Source: Clostridiales bacterium (GTDB lineage: Bacteria; Bacillota; Clostridia; Lachnospirales; CAG-274). From it: DNA of 43,395 nt. The position numbers were made by a program, and so were the translations under genes. The stretch's first letter is position 1. Each line of letters begins with the position of its first letter. The notes beneath the pieces were generated by a model. The model did no database searches. It saw nothing but the letters and a program-made list of their open reading frames with translations, and was not told the DNA's origin. The DNA lies in contig JAJQFU010000119.1 in NCBI GenBank assembly GCA_021200955.1, positions 1 through 43,395 on the forward strand, given 5' to 3'. Shown here piece after piece: positions 23,338 through 34,958 of this stretch.

Positions 23338-25308
23338 TTACTTAGAAACAGAAATATTTTTGATGTAGCTTAAAATTACATCTGCTGCGGCTTCCGAGCC
23401 TATTGAGCTGTCTATACAAAGCTCATAATCATGAGGTGAACCCCAGCTTCTGCCGGAAATGCTCTTATAATAGGCTGATCTTGCGGAGTCGGAACGGCGG
23501 ACATTCTGCTTTCCCTGTTCCTTAGTGTCTCCGTAAATTTCCATAACCTTGTTAATTTTATATTCCTCAGGAGCATAAATAAACACACGAATTACGTTCT
23601 TATATTTTCTCAAAACATAGTCGGCGGCTCTGCCTACGATTACACATGAACCCTTATCCGCAATAAGACGGATTGCCTTATCCTGTGCGGAAACTGCTCT
23701 CTGAACTGCGTTTGTGCTTAAGTAAAGCTCCTTCATTACCGCATTTTCGTTTGAGTTAATGCCGGAAATAAATTCTTTGGAAAGACCGCTTTCCTTAGCC
23801 GCAAGGGCAACCATTTCCTTATAATAGCAGTGTACTCCCAGCTTTTCAGCCACAAGCTGACCGATACGCTTTCCTCCTGAGCCATGCTCTCTTGAAATAG
23901 TAACAATAACGCCTTCCTTTGAGGGGTAAAGAACGCTTTCCTCTGTTTCTCCCTTCTCCTGCTGTTTAAGCTGCTTCCAAAGGCGAACCATAACCCCTGT
24001 TGTAATAACTATGGCAATTAAGTCTGCAAGAGGCTCTGCCAAAAAAATGCCTGTTACGCCTAAGGCAATAGGCAGAATAAGTGAAAATACTACCAAAAGT
24101 GCGTCACGGAGTATTGAAAGAGGTGCAGCAGCTTTGGCATGACCTATTGACTGTAAGAATATAGCGCATACCTTTTGGAGACAGGTGAAAACAATAAGGG
24201 AAAGGTATATACGCATACACAAAATAGCAAACTGTGTATAAAGCTCGCTGTCTGCACCGAACATACGGATAAATATGCCGGGAACAGCTTCAAAGAGAAC
24301 CGTACAGACAATACAAACGATGGCTGTCCACTTAATTATAAGCTTCAAAAGCTCTCTGACACGCTGATAGTTTTCAGCGCCGTAGTTATAGCCCGCAATA
24401 GGCTGAGCTCCTGCGGCAATACCTATGGCAATGTTAAGAACGATTTGGAAAAGCTTCATTATAACTACGAATGCCGCAAGAGGTATGTCGGCTCCGTAAA
24501 TGGATTTTGCACCGTAGCTTACAAGCAAGACGTTATTTACTACAGTAATAACAACTATTGAAAACTGTGTTAAAAAGCTTGAAACACCCAAGGACGAAAT
24601 TCTCTTAAGCTGAGATCCATCGGGAACAAGGCTTTTAAGGGAAAACTTGAAGGTTTTGCTTCTCAAAAGATATGCTGCACAGATTAAGAAGCTTACAAAC
24701 TGACCTACGATTGTGGCATAAGCTGCACCCTTGATACCCATATCCAAAACGAAGATTGCAAGAGGGTCGCCTACGATATTAAGAAGTGCGCCAACAATCA
24801 TAGCACCCATAGCATATTTGGGGCTTCCGTCGGCACGAATAATAGAAGCCAATGTATTCTGAACAAGTGCAAAGGGCATCATTGCAAAGACAATATAGCC
24901 GTAATCTCTGGCAAGAGTAAAGTTTGCCTCTGTTGCGCCGATTGTCATAAGAAGTCTGTCACCTAAAATATAGCAAATGGCAATTATAACAATACCGGAA
25001 AGAAACGAGCCTAAGACGGCGTTTCCTACGGTTTTATGAATGTCCTCTGTGTTGTTTCTGCCCAAAGACACGCTTAAAGCAGCGGCAGCTCCGTCGCCGA
25101 AAAGCAGTGAAGCGCCCCAGCCTATAACTGTAATGGGGAAAATAACACCTGTGGCGGCGTTGCCCAAATAGCCTACGCCGTTGCCTACGAAAATTTGGTC
25201 AACAATATTGTAAAGACACGAAATAATGAGGGAACAGATACATGGTACGGCAAACTTTCTTAAAAGAGTCCCCAGACGCTCCGTTCCCAAATAATTGTTT
25301 TCCTGCAT
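23338..25308 (-). CDS. MATE family efflux transporter fused to a cytidylate-kinase-like domain
   Basis: Residues 1 to ~450 of this 656-residue protein are a MATE antiporter with 12 predicted membrane segments (opening TLLRKFAVPCICSLIISCLYN; IVDQIFVGN; GYNYGAENYQR). MATE proteins export drugs or metabolites using Na+ or H+ gradients. From residue ~466 a soluble domain begins VIVTISREHGSGGKRI, the altered P-loop of the Cytidylate_kin_2 family, with IVGRAADYVL and later Arg-rich RRSDSARSAYY. The two parts are in one uninterrupted frame. The ATG at 25308 is chosen because AGGAGG lies nine bases upstream; 13 upstream codons lack support. The kinase-like domain would lie in the cytosol. Its substrate is unknown; it may sense or modify a nucleotide or a drug. 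Confidence 0.88.
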   Translation of the reverse strand: MQENNYLGTERLGTLLRKFAVPCICSLIISCLYNIVDQIFVGNGVGYLGNAATGVIFPITVIGWGASLLFGDGAAAALSVSLGRNNTEDIHKTVGNAVLGSFLSGIVIIAICYILGDRLLMTIGATEANFTLARDYGYIVFAMMPFALVQNTLASIIRADGSPKYAMGAMIVGALLNIVGDPLAIFVLDMGIKGAAYATIVGQFVSFLICAAYLLRSKTFKFSLKSLVPDGSQLKRISSLGVSSFLTQFSIVVITVVNNVLLVSYGAKSIYGADIPLAAFVVIMKLFQIVLNIAIGIAAGAQPIAGYNYGAENYQRVRELLKLIIKWTAIVCIVCTVLFEAVPGIFIRMFGADSELYTQFAILCMRIYLSLIVFTCLQKVCAIFLQSIGHAKAAAPLSILRDALLVVFSLILPIALGVTGIFLAEPLADLIAIVITTGVMVRLWKQLKQQEKGETEESVLYPSKEGVIVTISREHGSGGKRIGQLVAEKLGVHCYYKEMVALAAKESGLSKEFISGINSNENAVMKELYLSTNAVQRAVSAQDKAIRLIADKGSCVIVGRAADYVLRKYKNVIRVFIYAPEEYKINKVMEIYGDTKEQGKQNVRRSDSARSAYYKSISGRSWGSPHDYELCIDSSIGSEAAADVILSYIKNISVSK

Positions 25309-25334
25309 AAATAATCCTCCTGTTTTTTGAGAAC

Positions 25335-25405
25335 AAAAAAACGACACCTATATGTAAGCTTTGTGCCGTAATCAGATTTACACGCAAAGCGCCACATGTG
25401 TCGTT
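25335..25405 (-). terminator. intrinsic terminator/attenuator in the MATE-kinase leader
   Basis: The minus-strand RNA forms a rod: outer arms AACGACAC/GTGTCGTT (8 bp), middle GCTTTG/CAAAGC, inner GTAA/TTAC, followed at once by seven Ts. It lies after the promoter and ends about 25 bases before the start codon, leaving only the ribosome binding site. That is the position of a transcription attenuator or riboswitch expression platform, not of an end-of-gene terminator. No known riboswitch class was recognised. Confidence 0.75.
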
Positions 25406-25428: not shown

Positions 25429-25449
25429 AATGATATAAATAATATCATT
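25429..25449. repeat. palindrome over the MATE-kinase promoter (candidate operator)
   Basis: Perfect 8-bp arms AATGATAT and ATATCATT surround a five-base centre AAATA. The palindrome covers the whole -10 element and the expected start site, so a bound dimer (TetR- or MarR-like) would block transcription. No regulator gene is adjacent. Plain AT-rich coincidence is possible. Confidence 0.5.
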
Positions 25450-25467
25450 AAAATTAAAAAATGTCAA
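25439..25467 (-). promoter_or_regulatory. promoter of the MATE-kinase gene
   Basis: On the minus strand TTGACA (25462-25467) and TATTAT (25439-25444) are exactly 17 bases apart. Transcription would start near 25432 and run through a leader of about 125 bases containing the attenuator. Confidence 0.85.
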
Positions 25468-31981: not shown

Positions 31982-33916
31982 TTATTCCTCAACAGGAGCT
32001 TCTTCGGCAGCTTCTTCAGCCTTTGCGTTCTTATCGGCAGCAGCCTTAATGCTCAAGCTGATCTTCTTATTTTCAAGATCAAGCTCAGTAACCTTAGCTG
32101 TAATTTCCTGACCGATTGAAAGCTCATCCTCGGGCTTCTCAACGTGCTTAAAAGCAATCTGAGAAATGTGAACAAGACCGTCGATACCTTCTTCAAGCTC
32201 AACAAAAGCGCCGAAAGAAACCATTCTTACAACCTTGCCTGTTACAATGTTGCCAACTGCATATTTTTCAGCGGCTGTGTTCCAGGGGTTAGCGTTAATG
32301 TCTTTAAGAGAAAGTGAGATCTTGCCCTTTTCTTTGTTAATGTCAAGAATAGTAACAACAACCTTGTCGCCTCTTGAAAGAATATCGGAAACCTTTTTAA
32401 CTCTGCCCCAGCTCATTTCTGAGATGTGGATAAGTCCGTCAACGCCGCCTAAGTCAACGAATGCGCCGAACTCAACGATACGGCTTACAGTACCTTCTAC
32501 TCTTGAACCAATTTCAAGAGACTCGAAAAGCTGCTGCTTTCTTTCCTCAATCTGCTTTTCAACAAGTGCGCGTCTGCCGGCTACTATACGTCTCTTGGGC
32601 TTGTCTGTGCATTCGATAATATTGAAGTCAAGTTCTTCGCCTACAAACTTGTTAAGATCTTCAACGAATCTGTTTGAAACCTGAGAAGAGGGTACGAAAA
32701 CTCTCTCGCCCATAATATTAACGATAAGACCGCCTTTAACAACGTTCTTAACCTTACCTGTAACAACTGTGTTGTTTTCAAAAGCTTCCTGAAGTGCTTC
32801 GAAGTTTTTGGACTTGTCGCAGTACTTCTTTGAAAGTTCAACAACGCCCTCGTTATCGTTTACTCTCTTGATATAAACGTCGATTTCGTCGCCGGGCTTA
32901 ACAACGTCTGCAGGATTTACATCGGCATCGTCTGAAAATTCGTTTCTTTCGATAATACCTTCGTATTTGAAATCCAAATTAACGAATACCTCGCCCTTGT
33001 CGTTAACGCTGATAACAGTTCCCTTAACAACTCTGCCGCTTCTTAAGCTGAAATTGTCGTTAGCGTTAAGCATTTCTTCAAATGTTTTGTTTTCATCACT
33101 CATGGTCTTTATTGCCTCCTCGATTATACCGGGCGGTGTACTCGCTCCGGCTGTTATTCCTATTCTAACATTTTTTTTGAAACATTTCAACTGTTTTATG
33201 CAAATTTTTTCAAACAAAAATGTATTTTCGCAGAACTTTTTGCTCATGTTATAAAGTTTTTGGGTATTTGAGCTGTTTTTATCCCCCAAAACTATCATTA
33301 TATCAACCTGTTTTGCTATTTCAACGGCTTCCGACTGTCTCGCAGAGGTTGCACTGCAGATTGTGTTAAAAACTCTTACGTCCGCTTCGGGGGGAATACT
33401 TTTTTTAATTTCTTCAAAAACCGCTGTGTTAAATGTGGTCTGAACCACAAGAGAGTATTTTTCATTAAGGTTAATATCCTTAAGAGCGTCCTTTTCTTCT
33501 ATTATAACCGCCGTATTGTCGGAATATCCGTTTATGCCTTTAACCTCAGGGTGTGAAGGGTTTCCCACAATAATGATTTTCCGTCCTTCAAGATAATTTT
33601 CTCTGACTATGTTGTGAATTTTTTTAACATAGGGACAGGTTAAATCTACATACTCAAAGCCCTTTTCTTCGATTTCGTCATAAACCTCGGGGGGAACACC
33701 GTGGGAGCGAATGACGATTGTTGAGCCTTGCTCTGCTTCGTCAAGGCTGTCAATGGCGAAAACTCCTTTTTTCTCCAAGTCGTCGGTCACTATTCTGTTA
33801 TGAATAATAGGCCCGTAGGTATACATTTTTGTTTTGCCTATATCTCTGTAGACCGTCTCAACGGCTCTTTTAACCCCGGGGCAGAAACCTGCGGTTTTTG
33901 CTAACATAACTTCCAT
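31982..33916 (-). CDS. bifunctional HMBPP reductase IspH / 30S ribosomal protein S1
   Basis: Residues 1-280 are IspH, the last enzyme of the MEP isoprenoid pathway, with the Fe-S cysteines C12 (GFCPGVKRAV), C94 (DLTCPYV) and C187 (TICSATSARQ). Residues ~295-625 hold four S1 RNA-binding repeats (VVKGTVISVNDKGEVFV; VTGKVKNVVKGGLIV; VEGTVSRIVEFGAFVDL; VTGKVVRMVSFGAFVEL), and an Ala/Glu-rich tail ends the 644-residue protein. Such IspH-S1 fusions are known in Clostridia. The ATG at 33914-33916 is used because GAGGT lies seven bases upstream; 12 further upstream codons overlap cmk. Four repeats fit the short Gram-positive S1 type. Confidence 0.95.
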   Translation of the reverse strand: MEVMLAKTAGFCPGVKRAVETVYRDIGKTKMYTYGPIIHNRIVTDDLEKKGVFAIDSLDEAEQGSTIVIRSHGVPPEVYDEIEEKGFEYVDLTCPYVKKIHNIVRENYLEGRKIIIVGNPSHPEVKGINGYSDNTAVIIEEKDALKDINLNEKYSLVVQTTFNTAVFEEIKKSIPPEADVRVFNTICSATSARQSEAVEIAKQVDIMIVLGDKNSSNTQKLYNMSKKFCENTFLFEKICIKQLKCFKKNVRIGITAGASTPPGIIEEAIKTMSDENKTFEEMLNANDNFSLRSGRVVKGTVISVNDKGEVFVNLDFKYEGIIERNEFSDDADVNPADVVKPGDEIDVYIKRVNDNEGVVELSKKYCDKSKNFEALQEAFENNTVVTGKVKNVVKGGLIVNIMGERVFVPSSQVSNRFVEDLNKFVGEELDFNIIECTDKPKRRIVAGRRALVEKQIEERKQQLFESLEIGSRVEGTVSRIVEFGAFVDLGGVDGLIHISEMSWGRVKKVSDILSRGDKVVVTILDINKEKGKISLSLKDINANPWNTAAEKYAVGNIVTGKVVRMVSFGAFVELEEGIDGLVHISQIAFKHVEKPEDELSIGQEITAKVTELDLENKKISLSIKAAADKNAKAEEAAEEAPVEE

Positions 33917-33917
33917 T

Positions 33918-34958
33918 TTATACCTCTTTAATGTATTTCTTAACTTCCGCAACGATGTAATCCTTCACCTCTTCCACGGACATATGGGTTGTATCCAAAA
34001 GAACCGCATCGTCAGCCTGTCTCAAGGGGTTGTATTCTCTGTGGCTGTCGTTATAGTCACGCTTTTTAATGTCCTCTAAAATTTCTTCAAAGGTAACCGC
34101 CATTCCCTTAAGGTGAAGCTCTTCATACCTCCGTCTCGCCCTTTCTTCAACCTCTCCTGTCATAAAGACTTTGACCTCTGCTTTGGGCAAAACATTCGTG
34201 CCTATGTCTCTGCCGTCCATAATAACGCTTTGCTTTGAAGCAAGCTCTCTCTGAATAGCAACAAGCTTTTCTCTGACCGCCTTATAGGCAGCCACCTTAG
34301 AAGCTCCGTCTGAAACCTCCGGAGATCTTATAAGGTCGGTAACATCGTTTCCGTTTAAAATATATCTCTGCTCTCTGTTGGCGTTTTCAATGGTTATGTT
34401 TATGTTGTCAAGCTTTCTTAAAACCTGAACCTCATTATTATAGTCGATGTCCTTATCAATGCAGTAAAGGGCAACACTTCTGTACATAGCCCCTGTGTCG
34501 ATGTAGATAAAGCCCAGCTCCTTAGCCGCCATTTTGGCTATAGTGCTTTTTCCCGATCCCGCAGGGCCGTCAAGCGCCACCGCAACCCTGTGTTCCTTCT
34601 TCAAAAGGTCGGTTCTCAAAACTATTGCGTTATTCAAATAAACGTGGTTAATTTCGCTTTGGGGCATTATACCGTCTATAAACATTAAAGCCCTGATGCA
34701 CATTTTAAGGCTTCCCGTAACATTAAGCTCGGGAAAGTCCAAAAGACCGGCTCTCGTCAAGCCAATACTTCTTGCGGCTGTCGCCGGAAAGGCTGCGTTT
34801 AAGTCGCTTGTAACAGTGAAAATTACGCTTATAACGTCCTCTTTTTTAATTGAATTTCTTTCAAGCATTTCCAAAAGCATAACCCCTGTTTCGGAAATAA
34901 TTTCTTCTCTTGTGTTGGTTCTTACGGTAGTAGCGCCTCTAATTGCCCTTGTTGCCAT
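33918..34958 (-). CDS. fused chorismate mutase (AroH type) / cytidylate kinase
   Basis: Residues 1-120 match the trimeric AroH chorismate mutase of B. subtilis, with its active-site set preserved: R7 (AIRGATT), E77 (PELNVTG), R89 (KMCIRA), Y107 (HVYL) and R115 (VLRTDL). It would turn chorismate into prephenate. After a very short linker, residues ~123-346 are CMP/dCMP kinase with P-loop GPAGSGKST (131-139), IDTGAMYRSVALY, DGRDIGTNVLP and RRYEELHLKG. The 346-residue frame is uninterrupted, and GGGAGG lies before its ATG. cmk next to rpsA is a common order. Both activities look intact; whether the trimer of AroH forces the kinase to trimerise is open. Confidence 0.93.
   Translation of the reverse strand: MATRAIRGATTVRTNTREEIISETGVMLLEMLERNSIKKEDVISVIFTVTSDLNAAFPATAARSIGLTRAGLLDFPELNVTGSLKMCIRALMFIDGIMPQSEINHVYLNNAIVLRTDLLKKEHRVAVALDGPAGSGKSTIAKMAAKELGFIYIDTGAMYRSVALYCIDKDIDYNNEVQVLRKLDNINITIENANREQRYILNGNDVTDLIRSPEVSDGASKVAAYKAVREKLVAIQRELASKQSVIMDGRDIGTNVLPKAEVKVFMTGEVEERARRRYEELHLKGMAVTFEEILEDIKKRDYNDSHREYNPLRQADDAVLLDTTHMSVEEVKDYIVAEVKKYIKEV

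What the first reader, a model, noticed from the sequence alone, without database searches (positions are those of the whole stretch)
23338..25308. MATE transporter fused to a cytidylate-kinase-like domain
A 12-helix efflux carrier and a P-loop kinase-like domain (Cytidylate_kin_2 type, VIVTISREHGSGGKRI) are joined in one uninterrupted frame of 656 codons. Such a fusion would couple export to a cytosolic phosphotransfer or nucleotide-sensing step. Separate kinase-like proteins of this family occur in gut Clostridia with no known role, so the fusion may be the best clue to their job. Seen: both domains and the intact frame. Inferred: the functional coupling.
Basis: partly seen in the sequence, partly recalled or inferred. 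Interest (0 to 1): 0.7.

Follow-up and report, generated by a model that had tools for sequence, protein, structure and literature searches.

The report
RNA-leader exporter with kinase-like tail
A gut-type bacterium carries a drug-exporter-type membrane pump permanently joined to a kinase-shaped domain that has lost the key catalytic lysine, behind a conserved, apparently undescribed RNA switch, and hundreds of related bacteria keep the same arrangement, which gives a first testable clue to what this unstudied domain family does.

Summary
The fusion is real. It lies on the minus strand (25308 to 23338): 656 codons, MATE 1-452, a 15-residue linker, PF13189 at 468-635 (E 4e-44). It is neither an artefact nor unique. 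All 80 best database loci for this kinase type are MATE fusions, including isolate genomes. Both halves are under purifying selection. PF13189 has been joined to MATE at least two to three times. Unfused family members sit beside a MATE gene in 13 of 90 sampled loci. Kinase halves have been exchanged between MATE subtypes at the linker (p-AU 0.0002).

The domain has the CMP-kinase fold, but the Walker A lysine is glycine in every family member sampled. Catalytic phosphotransfer is therefore doubtful. A portable nucleotide-binding regulator is the better reading, and it is inferred.

Outside the given coordinates, the gene has a leader RNA containing a terminator hairpin with covarying stems and a likely pseudoknot. 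It stands before 61 of 71 such fusions, and elsewhere before DUF2798 membrane-protein genes. It matches no Rfam 15 family at E<=1 and nothing in the papers searched: a candidate orphan riboswitch. Ligand, substrate and nucleotide are unknown.

The parts
23338..25308 (-). MATE-PF13189 fusion gene, 656 codons plus stop (P0001)
   Evidence: intact homologues
23953..25308 (-). MATE half, residues 1-452, 12 TM helices, last helix running to about residue 452; D37 and D181 invariant in 24 aligned fusions
   Evidence: Pfam and NCBIfam; model pLDDT 81, pTM 0.64, Foldseek to MATE structures, best rows TMt 0.85-0.89; alignment
23908..23952 (-). linker, residues 453-467, low confidence in the model; region where kinase halves have been exchanged between MATE subtypes
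23404..23907 (-). PF13189 kinase-like domain, residues 468-635; P-loop REHGSGGKRIG without Walker A lysine
25439..25467 (-). promoter-like site TTGACA-17-TATTAT with TG before the second hexamer (11 of 12)
   Evidence: consensus match only
25360..25405 (-). conserved leader RNA core AACGACACATGTGGCGCTTTGCGTGTAAATCTGATTACGGCACAAA: 5' arm of P1, hairpin P2, conserved strand
   Evidence: R1 match 66.9 bits; conservation and covariation
25335..25348 (-). 3' arm of P1 (GGTGTCG) and T-run: intrinsic-terminator part of the leader
   Evidence: (fold z -3.45)
25306..25321 (-). Shine-Dalgarno AGGAGG and start codon ATG

Best explanation
The gene encodes an inducible exporter. (1) Shown from sequence: a promoter-like site lies just upstream and the leader folds into a terminator hairpin (P1) that holds a hairpin (P2) and a conserved strand. 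(2) Inferred: a small ligand, probably the pump's substrate or a related stress compound, stabilises the P2 loop pseudoknot and prevents full P1 formation, so transcription reads through. (3) Inferred from family: the MATE half expels a cytosolic compound against H+ or Na+; its coupling aspartates are kept. (4) Inferred: the C-terminal CMP-kinase-fold domain, held under the carrier by the extended last helix and a short linker, binds a nucleotide or phosphorylated metabolite and sets pump activity. It acts as a portable regulatory domain and not as a classical kinase, because the family lacks the Walker A lysine and the same kinase domain serves diverged MATE halves.
For: Intact conserved fusion, 80 of 80 loci. 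dN/dS for the kinase half mostly 0.01-0.25. Recurrent joining and adjacency. Walker A Lys replaced by Gly, gapless alignment to CMP and shikimate kinase. CMP-kinase fold, 3hdt Z 23.9, CMP kinases Z 13-15. Domain exchange at the linker, p-AU 0.0002. Leader RNA upstream of 61 of 71 fusions with covariation in P1 and P2 and loop complementarity, also upstream of unrelated DUF2798 genes.
Against: No ligand, nucleotide binding or transport was measured. Arg and Lys residues near the loop (R13, K20, R100, R150 of the domain; K20 invariant in this clade) could still support catalysis. The relative position of the two domains is not resolved by the model. Several fusions (the second MATE type) lack the leader, so RNA control and fusion are not obligatorily linked. 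Whether the switch is ON or OFF with ligand is a guess by analogy with guanidine-IV.
Confidence: 0.45

Rival explanations
1. The domain is a working kinase with a rearranged P-loop (Lys or Arg moved by one residue): it phosphorylates the substrate or a metabolite so that the MATE exports it or the compound is detoxified before export.
For: Fold and acceptor-site GR motif and LID Arg/Asp kept; Lys directly after the GxxG invariant in 70 of 70 fused proteins of this clade.
Against: Walker A Lys is Gly in all 101 readable family rows; this clade also changed the conserved Asp after beta2 to Tyr; kinase halves are exchanged among MATE subtypes, unexpected for a substrate-specific enzyme.
Confidence: 0.25
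2. The domain is a structural or assembly part (dimer contact, membrane anchoring partner) with no nucleotide ligand.
For: Loss of catalytic lysine; a tandem second MATE gene often lies upstream (13 of 70), so a partner-recruiting role is possible.
Against: Glycine-rich loop and basic residues are among the most conserved parts of the domain, which a pure scaffold would not need.
Confidence: 0.2
3. Assembly or annotation artefact, or a hitchhiking fusion without function.
For: Window comes from a draft genome of 157 contigs; a second fusion in the same genome has a decayed kinase half.
Against: 80 of 80 best loci fused, isolates and a complete genome included, dN/dS well below 1 in both halves.
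Confidence: 0.02

Closest known systems
DinF/MepA-type MATE exporters (DinF-BH BH2163, 4lz6, 5c6n; PF01554, TIGR00797)
   Same: 12-helix MATE fold, 30-32% identity to DinF-BH, coupling Asp residues kept
   Different: Carries a C-terminal PF13189 domain, absent in the solved MATE structures listed
PF13189 Cytidylate_kin2 proteins of known structure, 3hdt (C. symbiosum) and 3fdi (E. ventriosum)
   Same: Same family and fold, Z 23-24, 27-33% identity; same lysine-less loop
   Different: They are stand-alone proteins and uncharacterised; here the domain is fused, with Lys after the loop and Tyr in place of the conserved Asp
Bacterial CMP kinase (Cmk, e.g. 2h92, 1kdo; window copy 33918-34958)
   Same: Fold (Z 13-15) and distant sequence similarity
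   Different: Walker A GxxGxGK[ST] replaced by RxxGSGG; no evidence of CMP kinase activity
Guanidine-IV riboswitch and its Gd4v variant upstream of MATE genes (PMC7736828, PMC9788692)
   Same: Logic: terminator-embedded RNA with a loop pseudoknot before MATE genes
   Different: That motif has no conserved ACG trimer and consists of two hairpins; this leader has conserved ACG/CGACAC, its P2 nested inside P1, no upstream hairpin seen, and a different regulon (DUF2798)

Membership tests
MATE exporters (PF01554) | two MatE repeats above the Pfam cut-off and a 12-helix fold | tested here: met
MATE exporters (PF01554) | ion-coupling Asp in helix 1 | tested here: met
   D37 invariant in 24 sequences; its role is taken from published MATE work (own knowledge)
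MATE exporters (PF01554) | cation-coupled export of a compound | not testable with these tools
   needs transport assays
PF13189 Cytidylate_kin2 | full-length profile match above cut-off | tested here: met
   151 bits, profile 1-175 of 176
PF13189 Cytidylate_kin2 | fold as in 3hdt and 3fdi | tested here: met
   Z 23.9 and 23.0
Active NMP/CMP kinase | Walker A GxxGxGK[ST] | tested here: not met
   Lys position is Gly, first Gly is Arg
Active NMP/CMP kinase | phosphotransfer activity | not testable with these tools
   biochemistry needed
Guanidine-IV riboswitch | GGAM-1 consensus: no conserved ACG trimer, single CG dimer, two hairpins | tested here: not met
   leader has invariant CGACAC and ACGG; description in PMC7736828
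Guanidine-IV riboswitch | match to an Rfam covariance model | tested here: inconclusive
   no match to any Rfam 15 family for the window leader or for loci holding homologues at E<=1 apart from one unrelated chance hit; whether this class is in Rfam 15 was not established
Riboswitch (as a kind) | conserved structured 5' leader with covariation and an expression platform, before non-homologous genes | tested here: met
Riboswitch (as a kind) | direct ligand binding | not testable with these tools
   in-line probing needed

The most novel reading that the evidence does not exclude
The leader is a new riboswitch class whose unknown ligand induces both the MATE-kinase pumps and DUF2798 membrane proteins, and PF13189 is a lysine-less P-loop domain that senses a nucleotide or phosphorylated metabolite to gate MOP-superfamily exporters: a modular, exchangeable gating domain not described before.
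Probability: 0.3. Interest if true: 0.82.

Novelty: new variant of a known kind. Interest (0 to 1): 0.6.

Why it matters
PF13189 is a large family in gut Clostridia with two structures and no known function; in the held library only passing mentions were found. A conserved, recurrent tie to MATE exporters, the family-wide loss of the Walker lysine and the exchange of the domain among pumps turn an open question (what do these proteins do) into tests: nucleotide binding, and the effect of removing the domain on export. The leader RNA gives a second handle, because its ligand should name the pump's substrate class and also give DUF2798 proteins a role.

Tried and rejected
Read-through or stop between domains: none here; in some relatives (L071, L072) a single stop separates the two reading frames, which then look like adjacent genes. 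Defence system: no PADLOC match. Short upstream peptide as attenuator: the ATG in the leader is followed by TAG, or is missing, in several relatives. Known RNA: no Rfam match. Guanidine-IV: conservation pattern differs. Domain exchange in L119: turned out to be a mosaic with the upstream tandem MATE, so it was left out of the test. Exchange in L176: a single MAG, not relied on. HHalign of the kinase against the window's Cmk aligned only the C-terminal part.

Full report
What is there. The stretch 23338-25308 holds one uninterrupted frame on the minus strand, 656 codons from ATG 25308. Pfam finds MatE and PF13189 (468-635, E 4e-44) well above cut-off. NCBIfam gives TIGR00797 MATE above cut-off. 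The nearest solved structures are the MATE DinF-BH (BH2163) for residues 2-442, and 3hdt and 3fdi for 464-650. AlphaFold2 with 24 fused homologues gives pLDDT 81 and pTM 0.64. It shows a 12-helix carrier whose last helix runs to residue 452, a weak linker at 452-458, and an alpha/beta domain; Foldseek places the carrier on MATE structures. The domain modelled alone (pLDDT 86) matches 3hdt and 3fdi at Z 23-24 and CMP kinases at Z 13-15.

How common and how real. Searching the order with the whole protein found intact full-length fusions in at least 14 of 295 genomes, a lower bound since at most four candidates per genome were scored. A scan of 84,980 species genomes with the kinase-clade alignment gave 537 relatives. 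The best 80 loci all carry the kinase joined to MATE, 70 of them full length and uncut, in Lachnospiraceae and Oscillospiraceae, including isolates and a complete chromosome. Codon comparison shows purifying selection on both halves: dN/dS is about 0.01-0.25 for the kinase part in nearly all pairs with moderate dS. Synonymous distances saturate in GC-rich members, so only the low-dS pairs are used for this statement.

The link recurs. The genome itself has seven or eight PF13189 genes besides Cmk. One contig (C136) holds a second MATE fusion with a decayed kinase end, and a MATE gene followed at once by a separate PF13189 gene that bears an in-frame TAA. In 90 PF13189 loci of the class, picked by score and not by context, 13 have an adjacent MATE gene, 11 of them on the same strand. 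The expectation from roughly a dozen MATE genes per genome is about one in a hundred (inference). In the kinase tree the fused proteins need three changes of state, two forced by well supported branches. One long, fully fused clade holds the window protein; other fusions lie among MATE-adjacent genes. Two relatives have the two frames separated by a single stop codon, which shows an easy route from operon to fusion.

The domain moves between pumps. Among Oscillospiraceae and related fusions, one MATE subtype forms a clade with full support, but the kinase halves of the same proteins do not. Forcing them together is rejected (60 log units, p-AU 0.0002). Identity profiles change inside the linker, near residues 445-465. 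So kinase halves have been exchanged, or homogenised, between diverged carriers. This is expected if the domain does the same job for different pumps.

The kinase-like domain. In a gapless profile alignment to the window's own Cmk and to shikimate kinase, the Walker A lysine falls on glycine and the first glycine on arginine. All 101 family rows in which the loop could be read by pattern show R at the first position and G at the lysine position. In the fused clade a lysine follows immediately (70 of 70), and the aspartate after beta 2, conserved elsewhere, is tyrosine. The GR motif of the acceptor side and the D..R of the lid region are kept. From NMP-kinase knowledge this favours binding over phosphotransfer, but a rearranged active site is not excluded.

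The leader RNA (outside the given coordinates). Upstream are a good promoter match (25467-25439) and a leader that folds far better than shuffles (z -3.45), ending in a T-run just before the Shine-Dalgarno site. A core of 46 nt, AACGACACAYGYRGYGCNNNGCRYGTAARYCTGATYACGG and flanks, recurs upstream of 61 of 71 fusions although the flanks are unrelated. The P2 stem is paired in 100% of cells with C-G, U-A and G-C exchanges. The inner part of P1, tested on an anchor that does not use it, pairs in 278 of 328 cells against 248 in shuffles (0 of 5000). The P2 loop is complementary to nucleotides after the conserved strand in 55 of 91 cases against 30 expected (0 of 2000); shuffles ignore relatedness, so this is suggestive. 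102 of 103 leaders form P1 and 93 have a T-rich tail. A short peptide is ruled out by stops and missing start codons.

The regulon. A covariance model of the core found the RNA in 19 of 290 genomes of the order and 30 of 391 of the class. Of the genes behind these hits, 7 are MATE carriers and 32 are membrane proteins with DUF2798 (PF11391 E 7e-7 for one example). One RNA before two unrelated membrane-protein families is the hallmark of a ligand-sensing leader. There was no Rfam 15 match at E<=1 for the window leader, and only an unrelated chance hit for eight homologous loci. No paper in the library holds both DUF2798 and riboswitch, and the large candidate-RNA surveys checked do not mention MATE. 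Guanidine-IV riboswitches also control MATE genes, but their consensus lacks conserved ACG trimers (PMC7736828), whereas this core has two conserved CG sites.

Mechanism. Shown: gene anatomy, conservation, recurrence, loss of the lysine, domain exchange, structured leader, regulon. Inferred: ligand sensing by the leader, induction of the pump, and regulation of the pump by nucleotide or metabolite binding in the tail. Analogous logic is known for exporters under guanidine riboswitches and for carriers with nucleotide-binding tails (own knowledge). The rivals are a real kinase that modifies the cargo, and a purely structural tail.

Novelty. The two parts are known families. The architecture is surely present in databases, since cultured strains carry it, but no description of it was found in the held library. 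I rate it a new variant of a known kind, with the leader as a candidate new RNA class. Absence from Rfam and from one open-access library is not proof that it is undescribed.

Noticed in passing
window 25335-25405 (-), and upstream of DUF2798 genes in L268-L312: Conserved leader RNA with P1 terminator, P2 and likely pseudoknot, shared by MATE-kinase fusions and DUF2798 membrane-protein genes; no Rfam match. Candidate orphan riboswitch.
   Followed up: partly
L117, L123, L139, L162 and 13 of 70 loci: A second MATE gene, sometimes with its own stand-alone PF13189 gene, lies directly upstream of the fusion on the same strand: MATE, kinase, MATE-kinase in a row.
   Followed up: partly
L089 4360-8963 (own genome, contig C136): Divergent pair: a MATE-kinase fusion with a decayed kinase half next to a TetR-like gene (by eye), and a MATE gene followed by a PF13189 gene with an in-frame TAA.
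   Followed up: partly
L034 and nine similar loci: Stand-alone PF13189 genes of one lineage are followed on the same strand by a protein that looks like undecaprenyl-diphosphatase (UppP/BacA, not tested by profile); three others lie next to a flippase-like protein.
   Followed up: no
window 33918-34958 (-): Cytidylate kinase domain carries an N-terminal part that looks like AroH-type chorismate mutase (by eye), one 346-codon frame.
   Followed up: no
window 31982-33952 (-): Frame of 656 codons that looks like IspH joined to ribosomal protein S1 (by eye), a fusion familiar in Clostridia.
   Followed up: no
PMC9848294 table (F. nucleatum CS401_RS03610 and RS03620): A PF13189-type gene lies two loci from an RND efflux permease and is induced to a similar degree, another hint of exporter association.
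   Followed up: no
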